A DNA stretch of 38,070 nt, taken from the NCBI GenBank assembly GCA_030682385.1, contig JAUXOG010000104.1, forward strand, positions 88,023 through 126,092, given 5' to 3'. How positions within the stretch are numbered: the stretch's first letter is position 1; each line of letters starts with the position of its first letter. Made by a program: the position numbers and the translations under genes. Positions 23,170 through 32,916 of the stretch are shown piece after piece. The notes beneath the pieces are model-generated. The model saw only the letters and a program-made list of their open reading frames with translations. It did not search any database and was not told the DNA's origin. The DNA comes from Bacteroidota bacterium. Lineage in GTDB: Bacteria; Bacteroidota; Ignavibacteria; UBA10030; BY39.

Positions 23170-23242
23170 GCGGGAATAGCTCAGCTGGTAGAGCGTCACC
23201 TTGCCAAGGTGAATGTCGCGGGTCCGAATCCCGTTTCCCGCT
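23170..23242 (+). tRNA. tRNA-Gly (GCC)
   Basis: Acceptor GCGGGAA pairs with TTCCCGC; D-loop AGCTCAGCTGGTAGAGC; anticodon GCC in CACCTT-GCC-AAGGTG; T-arm GCGGGTCCGAATCCCG. CCA is not encoded. First of four tRNAs behind the promoter. Confidence 0.97.
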
Positions 23243-23359
23243 CAAGGTAACGAAAGAAGTTACCTTGGTCGTGAGAACGACCTTAAAACTTCCTCGTAAA
23301 AATTACCCCGCCGCCCCCAATCCCACCAGGTGGCGGGGCTTTTATTTGGTAGGAAGTTT
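23243..23359 (+). other. Three successive hairpins between tRNA-Gly and tRNA-Cys
   Basis: CAAGGTAAC/GTTACCTTG (23243-23267), GGTCGT-GAGA-ACGACC (23267-23282), and a large one with AAACTTCCT (23285) closing on AGGAAGTTT (23359) and an inner CCCCGCC/GGCGGGG (23306-23338) followed by CTTTTATTT. The inner stem could work as a terminator after tRNA-Gly; otherwise these may be processing signals or a REP element. Confidence 0.5.
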
Positions 23360-23362
23360 GAC

Positions 23363-23434
23363 GGCGCTGTACCCAAGTGGTAAGGGAGAGGTCTGCAAAA
23401 CCTTTATGCGGCGGTTCGAATCCGCCCGGCGCCT
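23363..23434 (+). tRNA. tRNA-Cys (GCA)
   Basis: Acceptor GGCGCTG pairs with CGGCGCC (one G-T); anticodon GCA in AGGTCT-GCA-AAACCT; T-loop GGTTCGAATCC. CCA not encoded. Confidence 0.96.
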
Positions 23435-23443
23435 CCCGAAATT

Positions 23444-23529
23444 GCCGGGGTGGCGAAATTGGTAGACGCACAGGACTTAAAATCCTGCGGACCGCAAGGT
23501 CCGTGTCGGTTCGATTCCGATCCCCGGCA
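23444..23529 (+). tRNA. tRNA-Leu (TAA)
   Basis: 86 nt with the long variable arm of a class II tRNA (GCGGACCGCAAGGTCCGTG). Acceptor GCCGGGG pairs with CCCCGGC; anticodon TAA in AGGACT-TAA-AATCCT; T-loop GGTTCGATTCC. CCA not encoded. Confidence 0.96.
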
Positions 23530-23547
23530 CTTCGAAATATTCTAAAT

Positions 23548-23621
<74 letters not shown>

Positions 23622-23663: not shown

Positions 23664-25604
23664 ATGAGTAATATAAAAATATCATTTCCTGATAATAGTT
23701 CACGCGATTTTGAAAGCGGTGTTACCGGTTTCAAAATTGCGGAATCTATCAGCAGCCGACTTGCGAAAGAAGCCCTTTCTGTTGAAGTTAACGGTGAGGT
23801 ATGGGATTTATCCCGTCCAATCATTAACGACGCTCAACTGAAAATATTTAAATGGGACGACGATGCAGGTAAACAAACTTATTGGCACAGCTCGGCACAT
23901 CTTATGGCGGAAGCAATTCAGGAAATATTTCCGGGAACAAAATTCGGAATCGGTCCATCGATCGAAAACGGATTCTACTACGATCTTGATTTAGGCGATC
24001 ATAAATTAACTAATGAAGACCTGAATAAGATTGAAGAAAAAATGAACGAATACATTAAACAGGATTTTCAATTCCGTAGAGAAGAAATTCAGTGGCAGGA
24101 AGCTTACAATTTTTTTCAACAAAAAGGGGATGAATATAAATTAGAGCTTCTCGACGAATTCAAAGGTGAAAAAATTACTTTGTATCATGTTGGTCAATTT
24201 ACTGACCTGTGTTACGGTCCACATTTACCTTCGACAGGTAAAATTAAATATATAAAACTACTTAATGTTGCAGGCGCATACTGGCGCGGAAGCGAAAAAA
24301 ATAAAATGCTTCAGCGTATTTATGGAATTACTTTCCCTACGAAAAAAGAACTTGACGATTATTTGTTCCGGCTTGAAGAAGCGAAACGCCGAGATCATAG
24401 AAAGTTAGGTACCGAGTTAGAAATATTTTTACTCACTCCAAAAGTTGGCGGTGGTTTACCTCTCTGGTTGCCTAAAGGAGCGGTCATTCGCGAGACGTTA
24501 GAAGATTTTTTAAAGGCAGAACAAAAAAAACGCGGCTATCTTCCCGTAGTTACTCCGCACATCGGTAACATTAATTTATATAAAACGAGCGGCCACTATC
24601 CATATTACAAAGACAGTCAGTTTACACCAATTAAAGTTGATGACGAAGAGTACTTACTGAAACCGATGAATTGTCCGCATCATTTTCAAATTTATGCTGC
24701 AAAACCACGCAGCTATCGTGATTTGCCAATTCGTTTAGCTGAGTTTGGAACGGTTTATAGATACGAACAATCCGGCGAGTTAAACGGACTGACCCGCGTC
24801 CGCAGTTTTACGGTTGATGATTCGCACATGTTCGTGCGACAAGACCAGTTGAAAGAAGAAATTTGTGGAGTAATTGATTTAATACAACTTGTGTTTAATA
24901 CACTTGGCTTCAAAGATTTTACTACCCGTCTTTCTTTCAGAGATGCTCTCAACAAAGAAAAATACGGTGGCGCCGACGAACTTTGGGATAGAGCTGAAAA
25001 GGAAATTCTCGAAGCTGCTGAAGAAATGAAATTAAAATACACGATAGCTAAAGGCGAAGCCGCTTTCTACGGTCCTAAAATAGATTTTATAGTTAGAGAT
25101 GCACTTGGCAGAAGTTGGCAATTAGGTACTGTTCAAGTCGATTACGTAATGCCCGAACGTTTTAACTTAGAGTATGTTGGAAACGATGGACAAAAACATC
25201 GGCCGGTTGTAATTCACCGGGCGCCTTTCGGAAGTTTGGAAAGATTTATTGGAGTTTTGATTGAGCATTTTGCCGGAGAGTTTCCTGTATGGTTATCTCC
25301 ATTACAAGTTGCAGTTATTCCGATAACAGATGCCCAAAACGATTATGCTTTAACTATAACTCAAAAGCTGAAGGATGCCGGTGTACGAGTTGAACTCGAT
25401 AGTAGAAATGAAAAAGTGAATTATAAAATCCGCGACTGGGAAACGAAGAAAACGCCTTATATGCTCGTTGTCGGAGACAAAGAAAAAAATTCAGACACGG
25501 TATCAGTTCGCCGGCATACAAAAGGCGATTTAGGAATCAAACCGGTATCAGAGTTCCTGAATCAAATTTCAATTGAAATTAAGGAAAAACAATTAACAAA
25601 TTAG
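23664..25604 (+). CDS. thrS: Threonyl-tRNA synthetase
   Basis: Charges tRNA-Thr. 646 aa, full length. Order: TGS domain (1-62), editing domain with YWHSSAHLMAEAIQ and the zinc-type cysteine/histidine in TDLCYGPHLPSTG, catalytic core (MNCPHHFQIY with the zinc cysteine, VDDSHMFVRQ, VIHRAPFGSLERFIGVLIEH), and the anticodon-binding domain (VAVIPITDAQNDYA, ELDSRNEKVNYKIRDWE). ATG at 23664. Its stop overlaps the ribosome site of infC, so thrS-infC-rpmI-rplT form one operon, the classical bacterial order. Confidence 0.97.
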   Translation: MSNIKISFPDNSSRDFESGVTGFKIAESISSRLAKEALSVEVNGEVWDLSRPIINDAQLKIFKWDDDAGKQTYWHSSAHLMAEAIQEIFPGTKFGIGPSIENGFYYDLDLGDHKLTNEDLNKIEEKMNEYIKQDFQFRREEIQWQEAYNFFQQKGDEYKLELLDEFKGEKITLYHVGQFTDLCYGPHLPSTGKIKYIKLLNVAGAYWRGSEKNKMLQRIYGITFPTKKELDDYLFRLEEAKRRDHRKLGTELEIFLLTPKVGGGLPLWLPKGAVIRETLEDFLKAEQKKRGYLPVVTPHIGNINLYKTSGHYPYYKDSQFTPIKVDDEEYLLKPMNCPHHFQIYAAKPRSYRDLPIRLAEFGTVYRYEQSGELNGLTRVRSFTVDDSHMFVRQDQLKEEICGVIDLIQLVFNTLGFKDFTTRLSFRDALNKEKYGGADELWDRAEKEILEAAEEMKLKYTIAKGEAAFYGPKIDFIVRDALGRSWQLGTVQVDYVMPERFNLEYVGNDGQKHRPVVIHRAPFGSLERFIGVLIEHFAGEFPVWLSPLQVAVIPITDAQNDYALTITQKLKDAGVRVELDSRNEKVNYKIRDWETKKTPYMLVVGDKEKNSDTVSVRRHTKGDLGIKPVSEFLNQISIEIKEKQLTN

Positions 25605-25615
25605 GAGACTAATAT

Positions 25616-26179
25616 ATTAAAGATCAACAAACGCCGAAGATAAACGAAGATATACGAGTAGCACGAATTCGTTTAATAGATGAGACCGGGCAGCAGCTCG
25701 GAATAATGACACCGCAAGAAGGAATGCGATATGCAAACGAACGGGGATTAGATTTAATCGAAATTGTTCCTACTGCTAACCCGCCTGTTTGCAAGCTGAT
25801 GGATTTGGGTAAATACAAATACGAGCTTACCAAAAAGGAGAAGTTGCAACGTAAAAATCAGCAGGTAGTGCTTTTGAAAGAGGTGCGTTTTCATCCAAAT
25901 ACGGATGTTCATGATTTCGAATTTAAAGCCAGGCATGCTCGATCTTTCATTGAAGATGGAAATAAAGTGAAAGCTACAGTTATTTTTAAAGGTCGGGAAA
26001 TTGTTTATAAAGAACACGGCGAAGCGTTATTAAAGCGGTTAGCTGAAAGAGTAGCTGACATTGCAAAAATCGAACAACCCGCCAAAATGGAAGGGAAATG
26101 GATGTCGATTATTCTAACTGCAGATAAAGTTGGTAAGAAAAAATCACCAAAAACACAAACTGAAGAAAAACAAATTTAA
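25616..26179 (+). CDS. infC: Translation initiation factor IF-3 (AUU start)
   Basis: Binds the 30S subunit and checks initiator tRNA and start codon. The first in-frame ATG (25706) would drop the N-domain start. Reading upstream gives ATT at 25616 followed by [20 protein letters not shown], the normal IF-3 N-terminus; GGAG lies 8 nt before. AUU is the famous infC start codon that lets IF-3 repress its own translation, so I choose it: 187 aa. Seen: [23 protein letters not shown]-like segment and C-domain [20 protein letters not shown]. Confidence 0.95.
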   Translation: [187 protein letters not shown]

Positions 26180-26190
26180 AGAGGTAAATA

Positions 26191-26385
26191 ATGCCAAAAA
26201 TGAAATCAGATTCAGGAGCTAAAAAAAGATTTAAACTTACAGCTTCAGGAAAAGTTAAAAGACGAAAAGCATTTAAGAGCCATATTTTAACATCGAAATC
26301 GCAAAAGCGTAAACGTAAGTTACGCCACGCAACACTTGTTTCGAAATCAGAAACAAAGCGAATTAAAATGCTTTTACCAAAGTAA
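26191..26385 (+). CDS. rpmI: 50S ribosomal protein L35
   Basis: 64-aa basic protein; [20 protein letters not shown] and [20 protein letters not shown] are the L35 pattern. GAGG 7 nt before ATG. Lies between infC and rplT as usual. Confidence 0.96.
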
Positions 26386-26429
26386 TTAATTAACAGAACC
26401 AATAACAACTAAAGGAGCAAAGAGCAACT

Positions 26430-26777
26430 ATGCCACGATCACAAAATAAAGTTGCCTCCCACCGCCGTCGTAAGCGTATATTAGAGCGAGCGAAAGGCTA
26501 CTGGGGAACTCGCAGTAAAGTTCTCACGGTTGCAAAGCACCACATTGATAAAGCTGGACAGCATGCATACCGTGATAGACGTTTAAAAAAGCGAGAATTC
26601 CGCCAACTCTGGATTGCACGGATCAACGCGGCAGCCCGGATGCACGGAACAACATACTCACGATTAATCGATGGAATGAAAAAGAAAAGCATCGATATCA
26701 ATCGGAAGGTATTGGCAAATTTAGCAGCCAATAACCAAGAAGCTTTTGCAGAGATCGTAAAATTTGCAATTGCATAA
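26430..26777 (+). CDS. rplT: 50S ribosomal protein L20
   Basis: 115 aa. [20 protein letters not shown] and [20 protein letters not shown] are typical of L20, an early 23S rRNA-binding protein. In many bacteria L20 represses rpmI-rplT; no leader structure could be assigned in the 44-bp gap. GGAG 10 nt before the ATG. A terminator follows. Confidence 0.97.
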
Positions 26778-26780
26778 ATT

Positions 26781-26832
26781 AATCTTCCCATCCTCTCCGT
26801 AACTTTTTATGAGGGTGGGAAGATTTTATTTT
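26781..26832 (+). terminator. Rho-independent terminator after rplT
   Basis: AATCTTCCCATCCTC pairs over 15 positions (one G-T) with GAGGGTGGGAAGATT, followed by TTATTTTTT. Ends the thrS-rplT operon; pheS starts 11 bp later. Confidence 0.9.
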
Positions 26833-26842
26833 TTAACGGCAG

Positions 26843-27859
26843 ATGACCATGAAAGAAACTATTGATGAAATAAGAAATCAGTTAGATTTCGAAATTACAA
26901 AAGTTAATTCGCTTCCCGAATTAGATCAATTTCGCATAAAATATTTAGCCCGTAAAGGTATAATAGCTGAGTTGTTCGAAACATTGAAAAATGTTCCTCC
27001 CGATCAGAAGCCATCACTCGGTAAAGAGTTGAACGAGTTGCGGACGCACGCACAAAATCTTCACGACGAGAAAAAAAATAATCTTGAAAGCAATCAAAGT
27101 TCGCAATCAGAACTAATTGATATAACTCTCCCCGGACGTCGTAAATGGATTGGTTCTTTGCATCCGATTACACAAACCTTAAACGAAATTAAATCAATAT
27201 TCTTGCGATTGGGATTCGAGATTGCTTCCGGTCCGGAAATCGAAGACGATTATTATAATTTTGAAGCTTTAAACTTCCCTCCCGATCATCCTGCACGCGA
27301 TATGCAGGACACATTTTTTATATCTAAAAAAACTCTATTACGCACACATACATCTCCTGTTCAGATTCGAGTGATGGAAAAACAACAACCGCCTGTGCGT
27401 GTAATTATGCCTGGAAGAGTTTATCGGAACGAAGCTATCAGCGCCCGTAGTTATTGCCTCTTCCATCAGGTTGAAGGTTTATATGTTGATACGAATGTTA
27501 CATTCAGCGAATTGAAAGGTACTCTTGTTGCATTCGCACAACAATTTTACGGGAGCGATTTAAAATTTCGTTTCCGTCCAAGTTTTTTTCCGTTTACCGA
27601 ACCAAGTGCCGAGATGGATATAAGCTGCTTTCTGTGTAAAGGCAAAGGTTGCCGTGTTTGTAAATATGCCGGCTGGCTTGAAATTTTAGGTTGTGGTATG
27701 GTCAATCCGAATGTTTATAAATTTGTAAATTATGACCCGATGAAAGTCAGCGGTTATGCTTTTGGTATGGGTATCGAACGTATCACTATGCTGCGTTATG
27801 GTATCGATGATATACGAATTTTGTTCGACAACGATGTTCGTTTCTTAAAACAATTTTAG
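26843..27859 (+). CDS. pheS: Phenylalanyl-tRNA synthetase alpha subunit
   Basis: 338 aa. The N-terminal coiled coil (1-90) is followed by the class II core: [40 protein letters not shown], motif 2 [20 protein letters not shown] and motif 3 [19 protein letters not shown] cysteine cluster [12 protein letters not shown] (zinc-like, residues ~263-274) is present, as in many PheS. ATG at 26843 or 26849 both possible. Forms an alpha2beta2 enzyme with PheT encoded 7 bp downstream. Confidence 0.97.
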
Positions 27860-27866
27860 TATCGGT

Positions 27867-30308
27867 ATGAAAATTTCTCTCAAATGGCTTAGACAATATG
27901 TAGAGTTCAATATTACACCTGAGGAACTGGCTGATAAACTTACAAAAGCCGGTCTCGAAGTCGAAAGCATTGATTATTTAGGCAGCAAGTTTAATAATTT
28001 TTTTACGGGTCAAGTTTTAACTGTAACGAAACATCCTAATGCAAATAAGCTCACAGTTTGCGATGTAAATGTTGGCGACTCAAATATTGCTATTGTATGT
28101 GGCGCACCAAACGTTGCAATCGGGCAGAAGGTTGTTGTAGGGTTAGCTGGCGCTGTTGTTCCTCGAAATCAACACGATCCCGATGGAAAGGCATTCGAGT
28201 TGGCTAAAGTAAAAATTCGAGGTGTCGAATCGAATGGAATGATATGCTCCGAGTACGAACTTGGTATTGGTGAGGATAAAGACGGAATCTTGGTTTTAAA
28301 CGACAATGTAACCATCGGAATACCACTTGCTGAGTTTTTAGGTTTGAATGATATAGTTTTCGAAATCGGTATTACTCCAAACCGTCCTGATTGCCTGAGT
28401 CACATCGGCATTGGTCGCGAAGTAGCAGCCGCTCTGAAAACGAATTACAAGCTTCCTGAAGTAACGATTAACGAGTCAAGCAGCTCAATCGAGAATTCAG
28501 CTATAGTAATCGTCGAAGATTCAGATAAATGTCCAAGATATTCTGCCCGCGTTATTAAAAATGTTAAGGTACAATCTTCACCCAAATGGTTACAAAATTA
28601 TTTATCGGCAATTAGTATTCGTCCGATTAATAATATAGTTGATGCAACTAATTATGTTTTAATGGAAACCGGGCATCCTCTTCATGCTTTTGATTATGAT
28701 AAATTAAATGAAAAGACTATCATCGTCAGAGAAGCAATCGATGGAGAACATTTTGTAACGTTGGACGGAAAAGGAAGATCGTTAACAGCTGGGATGCTTT
28801 TGATATGCGACGCAATCAAACCTATTGCTATCGCCGGCGTAATGGGTGGTATAAATTCTGAAATTACCGATAACACAAAAAACATTTTGTTGGAAAGTGC
28901 GTATTTCGATCCAAGGAGCATACGGAAAACTTCGAAACAATTAGGTTTGAGCAGTGATGCATCGCAGCGATTCGAAAGAGGCGCCGATCCGAATGCTACT
29001 ATCTATTCCATCAATCGTGCAGCACAATTGATTGCCGAAATTGCAGGCGGTGAAATTCAAAAAGGAATCATCGATGTTTATCCAAAACCATTCACTCCAA
29101 CCCGAATAAATGTAAGTTTGCAACGGAGTAATAATATTTTAGGTACGAATCTAAACGTCTGTCAAATTATTGAATTATTAGAATCGATAAATTGTGAACA
29201 TCAAGTCGCAGAAAAACAGAATGCCGAAAAGGATATTGTTACATTTAAAGTTCCTTCATTTCGTCCGGACCTTGAAAAAGAAATTGACCTGATAGAAGAA
29301 TTAGCCCGGTTGTATGGTTATGACAATATCGAAACTAAAATGCAATCGGTAATAAAATTTACTTCGAATCCTGTTCAATCCGACATTGTTGATGAAATGA
29401 GATTGTGGTTGGTAGGGAGGGGGTTCAACGAAATTGTAACTAATAGCTTGCAAAGCAAAGAGCTTGCTTATTTAAGTTCAAGTGAAGTTGTAGAAGTGAT
29501 GAACCCGATAAGTAAAGATATGGCTGCAATGCGGACGAGTTTAATTCCAAATATACTTGAAGTAGTACGTAACAACATATATCATCAAACCAAAAATTTG
29601 AACTTGTTTGAAGTTGGAAAAACCTACTTGAAAATTCTTCAAGAAAGTGAAAATCAGAAAAGCGATGAGAATTACAAGGAAGAAGATAAAATAATTCTGG
29701 CAAAATCGGGAATTGCAAATTTTCCAAATTGGGCTGAAAATGAACGAAATTCGGATATTTACGATCTTAAAGGTGAAGTTGAAGATCTACTTTTGAAATT
29801 TGGACTTGACAAATATAAATTTATTCCGTATTCTACTACTAAAGCTTTAGTTGATATGCCTGTAAGCATTGAAATTAACCAGATTGAAGTGGGTTATATT
29901 GCAAAAGTTCAGAAGCAAATGCTAAAGCAGTTTGATATTGAACAAGATGTATATATTGCAGACTTGAATATTAATATCTTTAAGTCATTATCGAAAATTG
30001 AAAAGAAATACAAGCCGTTGCCTGATTATCCGATGGTGTTACGTGATTTGGCTTTCATAACGGATAAAGTTGTACCGGTTTCCGAAATGCAAGGAACTAT
30101 TTATAAGGCTGGCGGTGAACTCTTAAGGACAGTAGAAATTTTCGATTTATATTCAGGTGATCAGATTCATTCTGATAAAAAGAGTTCTGCATTTACTCTT
30201 CAATTTTTTTCTGAAGATAGAACTTTAACTGATGTAGAAATTGAAAAAATTATTAATAAAATTGTTGAAGCAATGAAAGTGGCACATAATGCTGCTTTAA
30301 GAAAATGA
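27867..30308 (+). CDS. pheT: Phenylalanyl-tRNA synthetase beta subunit
   Basis: 813 aa, full length. Order: N-terminal MKISLKWLRQYVEF, tRNA-binding OB domain (about 40-150: GQVLTVTKHPNANKLTVCDV, IVCGAPNV), B3/B4 editing domain (RPINNIVDATNYVLMETGHP, GVMGGINSEITDNTKNILLE), B5, catalytic-like core, and the FDX-ACB anticodon-binding end (PLPDYPMVLRDLAF to C-terminus). Seven bases after pheS, with the ZapB-like gene 25 bp downstream. Confidence 0.97.
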   Translation: MKISLKWLRQYVEFNITPEELADKLTKAGLEVESIDYLGSKFNNFFTGQVLTVTKHPNANKLTVCDVNVGDSNIAIVCGAPNVAIGQKVVVGLAGAVVPRNQHDPDGKAFELAKVKIRGVESNGMICSEYELGIGEDKDGILVLNDNVTIGIPLAEFLGLNDIVFEIGITPNRPDCLSHIGIGREVAAALKTNYKLPEVTINESSSSIENSAIVIVEDSDKCPRYSARVIKNVKVQSSPKWLQNYLSAISIRPINNIVDATNYVLMETGHPLHAFDYDKLNEKTIIVREAIDGEHFVTLDGKGRSLTAGMLLICDAIKPIAIAGVMGGINSEITDNTKNILLESAYFDPRSIRKTSKQLGLSSDASQRFERGADPNATIYSINRAAQLIAEIAGGEIQKGIIDVYPKPFTPTRINVSLQRSNNILGTNLNVCQIIELLESINCEHQVAEKQNAEKDIVTFKVPSFRPDLEKEIDLIEELARLYGYDNIETKMQSVIKFTSNPVQSDIVDEMRLWLVGRGFNEIVTNSLQSKELAYLSSSEVVEVMNPISKDMAAMRTSLIPNILEVVRNNIYHQTKNLNLFEVGKTYLKILQESENQKSDENYKEEDKIILAKSGIANFPNWAENERNSDIYDLKGEVEDLLLKFGLDKYKFIPYSTTKALVDMPVSIEINQIEVGYIAKVQKQMLKQFDIEQDVYIADLNINIFKSLSKIEKKYKPLPDYPMVLRDLAFITDKVVPVSEMQGTIYKAGGELLRTVEIFDLYSGDQIHSDKKSSAFTLQFFSEDRTLTDVEIEKIINKIVEAMKVAHNAALRK

Positions 30309-30333
30309 CTTTAACTTTTTAGGAGAAAAATAA

Positions 30334-30678
30334 TTGGATTATCAACAAGCTGGAACAGACGCTAAAGTTATCATCGAGCAAAAAGAGATCGAAGCGGAAC
30401 TAAAAAGTCTCTGGGAAAAAATCAGAAAGGCTTCTGAAGTAATTTTCATGCTTCGCGATGAAAACCAACAATTAAAAGCACAAAACTCCGACCTTCAGCA
30501 AAAATATGATGAACTCAATTCCCAAATTATGGCAAAGGAACAGGAAATGATTCGTATTCGTACTGAATATTCGAGGTTAGCGAGTTCGACTGGCGAAGAC
30601 ACGTTTTCTTCTACGGAGAAAGAAGCATTGAAAAATCGTATTACCGATTTGATTACAAAAATTAATTCACATTTGTAA
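30334..30678 (+). CDS. Short coiled-coil protein, ZapB-like
   Basis: 114 aa, almost all predicted heptad coiled coil (about residues 12-75: EIEAELKSLWEKIRKASEVI ... QQLKAQNSDLQQKYDELNSQ). TTG start at 30334 behind a good AGGAG. It lies between pheT and zapA, and coiled-coil proteins in this place are candidates for a ZapB-type partner that links ZapA at the division ring. The assignment rests on shape and neighbour, not on clear homology. Confidence 0.6.
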   Translation: MDYQQAGTDAKVIIEQKEIEAELKSLWEKIRKASEVIFMLRDENQQLKAQNSDLQQKYDELNSQIMAKEQEMIRIRTEYSRLASSTGEDTFSSTEKEALKNRITDLITKINSHL

Positions 30679-30753
30679 AATATTTTTAAATTGACTGCGA
30701 GAACGGAACATCCTTAAAAGGATGAGAGAAACATTTATAATCAAGGAAATCAT

Positions 30754-31041
30754 ATGGCAACTGACAGCAAAAGTATAAGAGTAAAGATATTCGGGACTGA
30801 ATATCCGCTGCGTGGCGAGAGCGACGAGTTAACAAAAAAAGTTGCAAGCTATGTGGATGAGATGATAAATACTATCCACAGCAAAATCCCCGAACAGCCG
30901 CCACTAACTGTTGCAGTTTTATCAGCGTTAAATATTACTGAAGACCTGTTCAAAGAACGCGAAAAAACCAACAAGGTTATCTCTTTTGCTCAAAGCGAAT
31001 TAGACCGTATGAACGATTATCTGGATAAAATTCTGGAATAG
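30754..31041 (+). CDS. zapA: Cell division protein ZapA
   Basis: 95 aa. KSIRVKIFGTEYPLRGESDE then LTKKVASYVDEMINTI is the ZapA head, followed by a coiled coil (about 55-95) used for dimer and tetramer formation. ZapA bundles FtsZ filaments at midcell. AAGGAAAT lies before the ATG; a CATCC-TTAAAA-GGATG hairpin sits in the 75-bp gap ahead. A structured RNA follows, as zapA is followed by 6S RNA in many bacteria. Confidence 0.9.
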   Translation: MATDSKSIRVKIFGTEYPLRGESDELTKKVASYVDEMINTIHSKIPEQPPLTVAVLSALNITEDLFKEREKTNKVISFAQSELDRMNDYLDKILE

Positions 31042-31082
31042 TATCCCCTTTTTCGTTCTTTAAAATATTAGGTTATCAGATT

Positions 31083-31319
31083 AATAGCCACACCGTCAAC
31101 CGTAGTCAATACACTATTAAAGAACTTGACAAGTTAATTTAATAGGGAACCTGACTTAAGATCGTAATATTACAGGCCTCAATCCTGCGAAGGATCGGCA
31201 GAATCTCGAATTAATTTTCGATGCCGCAGTGGAAGTAAGAAACAATCTGGCAGGTACCCACTGTGCATTATTGAAGTTCTTCAATAATATTGTACTATCG
31301 TTGTGAGTGTGGCTTTTTT
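31083..31319 (+). ncRNA. Structured ~235-nt RNA, candidate 6S RNA
   Basis: No gene lies between zapA and rny (31042-31350), but the DNA is full of pairing. AGCCACAC (31086-31093) pairs with GTGTGGCT (31307-31314), which runs into a T stretch; inside it CAAC-CG-TAGT-CAATA pairs with TATTG-TACTAT-CGTTG, so a closing stem of ~25 bp forms. Inside are: hairpin CTATTAAA/TTTAATAG with AACTT/AAGTT (31114-31145), stem GGAACCTG/CAGGTACC (31146-31153 with 31251-31258), hairpin CGGCA...TGCCG with TCGAA/TTCGA (31196-31226), and ATTATTGAAG/CTTCAATAAT (31267-31288). Long closing stem, inner junction, own terminator and the zapA neighbour suggest 6S RNA; the family is an inference from shape and synteny. Confidence 0.6.
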
Positions 31320-31350
31320 ATTTAAATTATCAGTAACTATAGAGGTTAAA

Positions 31351-32916
31351 ATGAGTGAAACATATATATTTATAGCCATCGTTGTAGCTGCTTCGACTTT
31401 TGGTTTCTTGTTTGGATGGTATATCAACAACCGAATTATTAAAAATAAAATTGTATTTGCCGAAGACAGAGCAAAACAGCTTCTCGGAAATGCTGAAAAA
31501 GAAACCAATGCTCTGAAAAAAGAGAAATTACTCGAAGTAAAAGATGAGTGGTATAAGAAGAAGCAGGAATTCGATCATGAGCATAACGCAAAAAAGAATA
31601 AATTAACTGCTTTCGAAAAACAACTGACCCAGCGTGAAGAAAATTTCGACCGCAAAGTTGATCTGATCAACAAGAAAGAACAAGATCACAATAATTTAAA
31701 GAAAGAACTTGAAGCGAAAGCGAAACTAATCCAAACGAAAACACAAGAATTAGATAGATTGACCCAATCGCAAAATATCAAGCTCGAAAAGATATCGGGT
31801 ATGACTTCAGATGAAGCGAAGAAAATGCTGCTCGAAAATTTGATACAGGAAACCAAAAACGAATCAGCCGGGCAACTTAAATTAATTCGCGACCAAGCAA
31901 AATTAGATGCTAAAAAAGAATCTCAAAAATTAACTATACAGGCAATTCAAAGATTCGCTGCCGATTATACAGTTGAATCAACTGTAAGTGTCCTCAATAT
32001 CCAAAGCGATGAAATGAAAGGAAGAATCATCGGCAGGGAAGGCAGAAACATACGGGCGTTTGAAGCCGCAACCGGCGTCGATGTAATAGTTGATGATACT
32101 CCAGAAGCTGTTATTCTGTCAGCATTCGATCCCATGAGGCGTGAAGTCGCAAAAATGGCTTTAGAAAAATTGATGACAGACGGACGGATACACCCGAGCA
32201 GAATTGAAGAAATTGTTGAAAAAGTACGAGCTGATGTAGAAGAAGAAATAATCCGCGTTGGCGAAAATGCGATGATGCAGCTTGGTATCAACAACGCACA
32301 TCCCGAAATAATTAAATGTATCGGCAAAATGAAATATCGTTCGTCTTACGGTCAAAATTTATTATCGCACAGCATTGAAGTTGCTCACCTGACCGGATTA
32401 ATGGCTGCAGAGTTAGGACTGGATGCAACATTGGCACGAAGAGCCGCATTAATGCACGACATCGGAAAAACAGTCGATAAATTAGCCGATGGTCCGCACG
32501 CATTGTTGGGTTATGAATTTGCAAAAAAATACAACGAGAACCCTGTTGTTGTGAACGTGATTGGTTCGCATCACGAAGATATGCCGATGGAAACACCAAT
32601 CGCCGCACTCGTTCAAGCGGCTGATGCGATTAGCGGTGCCCGACCTGGTGCTCGACGTGAATCTGTAGAAGGTTACGTGAAGCGGCTTGAAAAACTTGAG
32701 AATGTTGCAACCTCATTCGATGGTGTAGCAAAAACGTTTGCAATTCAAGCCGGAAGAGAAATTCGGGTGATGGTGGAACCAGAAAAGATCGACGATGCAC
32801 GCGCCGACCAATTAGCTAACGATATTGCAAAAAAAATTGAACAAGAATTGGAGTATCCAGGACAAATTAAAGTGATTATTATTCGCGAACGGCGCTCGAT
32901 TGCGTATGCAAAATAA
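31351..32916 (+). CDS. rny: Ribonuclease Y
   Basis: Membrane-anchored endoribonuclease that starts mRNA decay. 521 aa. A transmembrane helix (YIFIAIVVAASTFGFLFGWY, residues 5-24), a long charged coiled coil (30-210), the KH domain (MKGRIIGREGRNIRAFEAAT), and the HD domain with LSHSIEVAHLTGLMA and ALMHDIGKTVDK, plus DAISGARPGARRE and the usual C-terminus. The frame is open from a GTG at 31303, but that lies in the structured RNA; ATG 31351 has GAGG 7 nt ahead and gives a normal Rny N-terminus. Confidence 0.96.
   Translation: MSETYIFIAIVVAASTFGFLFGWYINNRIIKNKIVFAEDRAKQLLGNAEKETNALKKEKLLEVKDEWYKKKQEFDHEHNAKKNKLTAFEKQLTQREENFDRKVDLINKKEQDHNNLKKELEAKAKLIQTKTQELDRLTQSQNIKLEKISGMTSDEAKKMLLENLIQETKNESAGQLKLIRDQAKLDAKKESQKLTIQAIQRFAADYTVESTVSVLNIQSDEMKGRIIGREGRNIRAFEAATGVDVIVDDTPEAVILSAFDPMRREVAKMALEKLMTDGRIHPSRIEEIVEKVRADVEEEIIRVGENAMMQLGINNAHPEIIKCIGKMKYRSSYGQNLLSHSIEVAHLTGLMAAELGLDATLARRAALMHDIGKTVDKLADGPHALLGYEFAKKYNENPVVVNVIGSHHEDMPMETPIAALVQAADAISGARPGARRESVEGYVKRLEKLENVATSFDGVAKTFAIQAGREIRVMVEPEKIDDARADQLANDIAKKIEQELEYPGQIKVIIIRERRSIAYAK

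What the first reader, a model, noticed from the sequence alone, without database searches (positions are those of the whole stretch)
31042..31350. Strongly folded RNA between zapA and rny
A ~25-bp closing stem, an internal stem and four hairpins, ended by a stem running into T residues, fill a gap with no gene. Its place after zapA and its shape (long closing stem, internal loop flanked by a 3' hairpin) recall 6S RNA, but the strongly paired 5' hairpin and the ~235-nt length are unusual for 6S. An alternative pairing GTTCTTTAA (31055) with TTAAAGAAC (31117) would compete with the 5' hairpin, suggesting a possible switch.
Basis: partly seen in the sequence, partly recalled or inferred. Interest (0 to 1): 0.6.

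Follow-up and report, generated by a model that had tools for sequence, protein, structure and literature searches.

The report
Divergent 6S RNA in Ignavibacteria
The gap between zapA and rny encodes the bacterium's 6S RNA, the well-known RNA that parks RNA polymerase when cells stop growing, in a form diverged enough that the standard RNA database does not flag it in this genome, and many relatives carry an rRNA-type BoxA-like element just upstream.

Summary
The 31042-31350 gap holds a strongly folded RNA (core 31087-31319; fold z = -4.9) kept between zapA and rny throughout the order. It is a divergent 6S RNA. Rfam's 6S model gives no match to the window copy, but searched over whole relatives' genomes it picks this locus: 38-41 bits in four relatives, just under the 46.4-bit cut-off, and 47.1 bits, above it, in a same-class relative. 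A covariance model built from the Ignavibacteria copies finds such an RNA in 156 of 296 Bacteroidota genomes, typically at zapA-rny in the loci fetched. None of these overlap the 36 genomes with 6S-Flavo, which also lies directly before rny. In a 100-sequence alignment 29 of 35 pairs show two-sided compensatory changes. The helix across the central bubble covaries and competes with two local hairpins, as in E. coli-type 6S release. Polymerase binding and pRNA synthesis are inferred. Verdict: new member of a known kind.

The parts
31087..31319 (+). 6S RNA (ssrS) core, closing stem through T run
   Evidence: R1 match 31087-31322, 206.7 bits; fold z -4.9; covariation; RF00013 at the same locus in relatives
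31087..31093 (+). closing stem 5' arm (GCCACAC)
   Evidence: pairs with 31307-31313; 6 of 7 pairs covary in A3
31307..31319 (+). closing stem 3' arm (GTGTGGC) and T run, probably also the intrinsic terminator
   Evidence: sequence; the scan for short-loop terminators finds none, since the stem here is long-range
31120..31127 (+). downstream helix, 5' strand (AAGAACTT), predicted pRNA template
   Evidence: 8 of 9 model pairs covary; duplex energy better than shuffled control in 98% of sequences
31274..31281 (+). downstream helix, 3' strand (AAGTTCTT)
   Evidence: covaries AAGTT/AACTT, AGGTT/AACCT, AGATT/AATCT
31128..31144 (+). 5' strand of the central bubble; predicted pRNA start opposite C31130
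   Evidence: alignment of relatives to RF00013; start site is inference
31260..31273 (+). 3' strand of the central bubble
   Evidence: alignment of relatives to RF00013
31145..31153 (+). upstream helix 5' strand (GGGaACCTG)
   Evidence: pairs with 31251-31259; 5 of 7 pairs covary, 2 invariant
31251..31259 (+). upstream helix 3' strand (CAGGTaCCC)
31160..31178 (+). inner helices 5' strands (GATcGT, TTAC, CC)
   Evidence: pair with 31242-31247, 31235-31238, 31231-31232; helices 4-6
31231..31247 (+). inner helices 3' strands, with conserved GGAAG..AAGAAAC
   Evidence: conserved columns
31182..31226 (+). variable apical hairpins (31182-31185/31192-31195 and 31196-31200/31222-31226)
   Evidence: sequence and centroid fold; length varies between families
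31114..31145 (+). alternative 5' hairpin (31114-31121 with 31138-31145)
   Evidence: centroid fold; local folding excess
31267..31288 (+). alternative 3' bubble hairpin (31267-31275 with 31280-31288), candidate release hairpin
   Evidence: centroid fold; counterpart in E. coli 6S described in PMC8876501
31054..31067 (+). BoxA-like leader element CGTTCTTTAAAATA
   Evidence: GTTCTTT upstream in 45/99 loci against 1.2 in shuffles; GTTCTTTGAAA in the 16S leaders of relatives; function inferred
30754..31041 (+). zapA, conserved upstream neighbour
   Evidence: Pfam ZapA; upstream in 99/100 aligned loci
31351..32916 (+). rny (RNase Y), conserved downstream neighbour
   Evidence: Pfam RNase_Y_N

Best explanation
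It is the 6S RNA (ssrS) of an Ignavibacteria bacterium. Shown here: a conserved, covarying rod made of a closing stem, a downstream helix, a central bubble and upstream helices, matching the layout and conserved letters of RF00013, in the zapA-6S-rny locus used across much of Bacteroidota. Inferred from known 6S biology: the rod mimics an open promoter and binds the housekeeping sigma-RNA polymerase in slow growth. When NTPs return, the polymerase copies the 5' bubble strand, probably from C31130 into the downstream helix, giving a pRNA beginning GUCAAGUUCUUU. That opens the downstream helix, its 3' strand snaps into the 3' bubble hairpin (31267-31288), and the RNA lets go. Also inferred: a BoxA-like element in the leader lets the transcribing polymerase resist early termination, as in rRNA operons.
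For: RF00013 searched over 31 whole genomes gives its best hits at this locus (38.2-40.8 bits, E about 1e-6 per genome, full length 1-187), and one same-class member of the family passes the gathering score (L154, 47.1 bits). R1 scores the window at 206.7 bits and L154 at 117 bits, linking the two. 29 of 35 pairs covary in 100 sequences, 94.2% of cells are paired, and slid controls give 37-53%; on a plain MAFFT alignment 18 of 31 pairs have two-sided changes. Usually one hit per genome. Same upstream neighbour as E. coli, zapA-ssrS. 6S-Flavo lies directly before rny in 20 of 20 loci fetched and never shares a genome with an R1 hit in the sample. The cross helix (-12.0 kcal/mol mean) and the local hairpins (-2.9 and -6.2) are close in energy, as a pRNA-driven switch needs. 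Bacteroides 6S RNA and its pRNAs have been seen by dRNA-seq (PMC7366714).
Against: RF00013 does not match the window copy itself, and R1 does not find E. coli ssrS, so the link is through relatives. Most members stay under the Rfam cut-off. A3 is fitted to the model structure. No expression, polymerase-binding or pRNA data were available for this lineage.
Confidence: 0.92

Rival explanations
1. A different, uncharacterised structured RNA (for example a housekeeping RNA or ribozyme) that only resembles 6S.
For: High conservation of internal letters (GUGGAAGUAAGAAAC, CAGGCC) seems more than most 6S RNAs show; the window copy fails RF00013.
Against: Among 4227 families only RF00013 matches, repeatedly and at this place; the same letters (GGAAG, AAA, ACCCACC) are in the 6S consensus; zapA neighbourhood shared with E. 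coli.
Confidence: 0.05
2. A cis-regulatory 5' leader of rny, a switch in which GTTCTTTAA (31055) and the 5' hairpin compete to control RNase Y.
For: Lies directly upstream of rny in nearly all genomes; exact 9-nt complementarity.
Against: The RNA ends in its own closing stem and T run 31 nt before rny; the GTTCTTT element is kept in 13 sequences whose partner has lost complementarity and is missing from 27 that keep the partner; strong homology to 6S.
Confidence: 0.03
3. The RNA is 6S, but the upstream GTTCTTT element is a promoter element for it rather than BoxA.
For: It sits 27-58 nt upstream of the RNA, within the range where a promoter could lie; no scan for Bacteroidota-type promoters was run.
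Against: Its distance to the RNA varies by 30 nt between relatives and the identical core occurs in the leaders of the 16S genes.
Confidence: 0.3

Closest known systems
6S / SsrS RNA, Rfam RF00013 (E. coli ssrS type)
   Same: Rod layout, central bubble, downstream helix whose 3' strand can fold into a 3' bubble hairpin, conserved GGAAG...ACCCACC letters, location after zapA
   Different: Window copy falls below detection; longer (about 235 nt), variable extra apical hairpins, an inserted hairpin in the closing stem of one family (f2), rny rather than fau downstream, BoxA-like leader in many members
6S-Flavo, Rfam RF01685
   Same: Bacteroidota 6S RNA, lies directly upstream of rny
   Different: Model of only 108 positions, no match here, found in other families of the phylum with no genome overlap in the sample
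Bacteroides thetaiotaomicron 6S RNA
   Same: 6S RNA with pRNAs in the same phylum (PMC7366714)
   Different: Sequence and locus not compared here
rRNA-leader BoxA
   Same: Shares GTTCTTT with the 16S leaders of the same order
   Different: Precedes 6S RNA, commonly followed by NNCATA or AAAATA instead of GAAAA; no BoxA-6S link was found in the library searched

Membership tests
6S RNA | Homology to the 6S covariance model RF00013 | tested here: met
   Met at family level: 38-41 bits in four relatives (below the 46.4 cut-off) and 47.1 bits (above it) in L154. The window's own copy gives no match up to E = 10; it joins through R1 (206.7 bits).
6S RNA | Rod with closing/downstream helix, central bubble and upstream helix, supported by covariation | tested here: met
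   29 of 35 pairs with two-sided changes, 94.2% of cells paired; 18 of 31 on an alignment not fitted to a structure
6S RNA | Alternative 3' bubble hairpin that uses the 3' strand of the downstream helix (E. coli type; not universal in 6S) | tested here: met
   Present in window (31267-31288); in the best-scoring 44 sequences 82% fold locally better than shuffles at z < -1.5, in the rest 34%
6S RNA | Binds the housekeeping sigma-RNA polymerase holoenzyme | not testable with these tools
   No biochemical data
6S RNA | Serves as template for pRNAs | not testable with these tools
   Start at C31130 is inferred from the RF00013 alignment of relatives
6S-Flavo (RF01685) | Match to RF01685 | tested here: not met
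   No match in window nor in G000 or the other listed genomes of its order
BoxA | Same core as the rRNA BoxA of the organisms | tested here: met
   GTTCTTT shared with 16S leaders of relatives; enriched upstream of 6S, 45/99 against 1.2. The window genome's own 16S leader was not found.
BoxA | Recruits NusB-S10 and prevents termination | not testable with these tools
   Inference from established rRNA antitermination

The most novel reading that the evidence does not exclude
In much of the Ignavibacteriales and some relatives, the 6S RNA is transcribed under rRNA-type BoxA antitermination, so that a growth-limiting polymerase inhibitor and the ribosomal RNAs share an elongation control; the leader core is also the same letters as the predicted pRNA, so the unprocessed precursor might hold itself in the pRNA-bound shape.
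Probability: 0.35. Interest if true: 0.55.

Novelty: new member of a known kind. Interest (0 to 1): 0.35.

Why it matters
It gives a 6S gene to a lineage where the standard search finds none or stays under its cut-off, shows that zapA-6S-rny is a locus kept widely in Bacteroidota and that 6S-Flavo shares its place before rny, and supplies an alignment from which a better model could be built. The BoxA-like leader, if confirmed, would link 6S production to the rRNA antitermination machinery.

Tried and rejected
A kissing-loop pseudoknot between the two hairpins was considered first; the same pairs are a nested helix in the rod and match RF00013's own helix, so no pseudoknot is needed. The leader/5'-hairpin switch was tested on 100 loci and not supported as a conserved pairing. 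R1 against E. coli ssrS, unfiltered: no match at ssrS. Other exact genome matches to TGTTCTTTNNCATA were fetched to see whether they precede other RNAs: the eight fetched hold no tRNA, tmRNA or Rfam RNA and overlap long open frames on one strand or the other, so they look like chance. One key survey of 6S RNAs (Wehner 2014) is not in the library, so whether it already lists Ignavibacteria is unknown. Promoter scan: nothing above chance.

Full report
Observation. The region between zapA (30754-31041) and rny (31351-32916) was read and both genes were confirmed by Pfam. 31086-31318 folds to -68.5 kcal/mol, 4.9 standard deviations below shuffles, 0 of 200 shuffles as low. The whole gap with flanks is less exceptional (z -1.95), which places the structured RNA at about 31087-31319.

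Conservation. A blastn search of 60 relatives finds the RNA over much of the order. In the 30 loci fetched, zapA was found in all and rny in 29, the last at a contig end. Named records from a genome collection place these organisms in Ignavibacteria/Ignavibacteriae within Bacteroidota. The window genome itself is unnamed.

Identity. Rfam has nothing for the window's gap at gathering scores or up to E = 10 other than one chance hit to part of zapA. But RF00013 (6S), run over 31 whole relatives' genomes, gives its four best hits at this very locus, 38.2-40.8 bits against a cut-off of 46.4, spanning the whole model. Three of the next four hits also lie between zapA and rny (L035, L036, L038). In the wider class one member, L154, reaches 47.1 bits and passes the cut-off. 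The alignments share GGGAGC, GCC/GGAAG, AAA and ACCCACC and place our cross-bubble helix on the helix of the 6S model. A covariance model from 28 Ignavibacteria sequences (R1) scores the window at 206.7 bits and L154 at 117 bits. R1 does not reach E. coli ssrS, so the link to 6S rests on RF00013 and the intermediate members. E. coli ssrS also follows zapA, and zapA-ssrS linkage in beta- and gamma-proteobacteria is described in PMC7641849.

Spread. In 296 sampled Bacteroidota genomes R1 finds a match in 156, nearly always one per genome: all 14 other genomes of the order, 52 of 58 of the rest of the class, and many outside it. Of the 30 loci fetched, 27 have a recognisable zapA and 29 a recognisable rny. 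The known 6S-Flavo family is found in 36 of the same 296 genomes, none of which is in the R1 list, and rny lies beside it, downstream, in all 20 loci fetched. The two are therefore probably one orthologous gene with diverged sequence (inference). The mutual exclusion was read by comparing the two lists.

Structure. On a plain MAFFT alignment RNAalifold finds 31 pairs, 18 with two-sided changes. On 100 model-aligned sequences 94.2% of cells pair, 29 of 35 pairs have two-sided changes, and slid controls fall to 37-53%. A3 leans to the structure it was fitted to; the first result does not. The helix across the central bubble (31120-31127 with 31274-31281 in the window) covaries visibly in the raw sequences: AACCT/AGGTT in most, AATCT/AGATT in one family, AACTT/AAGTT in the window's genus. 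It competes with a 5' hairpin (31114-31121/31138-31145) and a 3' hairpin (31267-31275/31280-31288); mean energies are -12.0 for the cross helix against -2.9 and -6.2.

Mechanism. In E. coli 6S, unwinding of the downstream helix by pRNA synthesis lets its 3' strand form a 9-bp hairpin with the 3' bubble strand, which drives release; B. subtilis differs (PMC8876501). The same arrangement is present here, so an E. coli-type release is the best-supported mechanism. The pRNA start at C31130 is inferred from the RF00013 alignment of relatives. Bacteroides 6S RNA and pRNAs have been detected by dRNA-seq (PMC7366714).

Leader element. GTTCTTT occurs within 90 nt upstream of the RNA in 45 of 99 loci against 1.2 in shuffles (maximum 5), 27-58 nt before the RNA. 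The 16S leaders that could be read in relatives carry GTTCTTTGAAA, which I take from general knowledge to be the rRNA BoxA; the window genome's own 16S was not found. Thirteen loci keep the element although their 5' bubble strand has lost the complement, and 27 keep the strand without the element. The element is therefore better explained as BoxA than as a switch strand. It is absent where the RNA starts within about 30 nt of the zapA stop codon and from several families with longer leaders. Antitermination is inference; a library search for 6S RNA with boxA returned two papers, neither with either term in its title or abstract (not read).

Literature limits. 6S-Flavo is from PMC2864571. The main survey of 6S RNAs could not be read, so prior listing of Ignavibacteria 6S cannot be ruled out.

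Verdict. An ordinary but previously hard-to-see gene: a 6S RNA, new member of a known kind. The BoxA-like leader is the part that deserves a test.

Noticed in passing
window 23664-32916: Gene order thrS-infC-rpmI-rplT-pheS-pheT-(zapB-like)-zapA-6S-rny: the 6S gene sits at the end of a translation gene cluster. A table in PMC4227106 lists Aquifex 6S RNA beside pheT, a possible deep synteny.
   Followed up: partly
window 31054-31067: BoxA-like CGTTCTTTAAAATA upstream of 6S, shared in core with rRNA leaders of relatives.
   Followed up: yes
L006, L008, L010, L011, L013, L015 and other f2 loci: One family has an extra variable hairpin inserted into the 6S closing stem.
   Followed up: no
window 31120-31130 and 31055-31061: The predicted pRNA (GUCAAGUUCUUU) contains the same GUUCUUU letters as the leader BoxA; possible coincidence or precursor self-inhibition.
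   Followed up: partly
window 23170-23621: Cluster of four tRNA genes upstream of thrS.
   Followed up: no
G080, G100, G212, G216, G247, G262: Six same-class genomes without an R1 match; not checked whether 6S is lost or more diverged.
   Followed up: no
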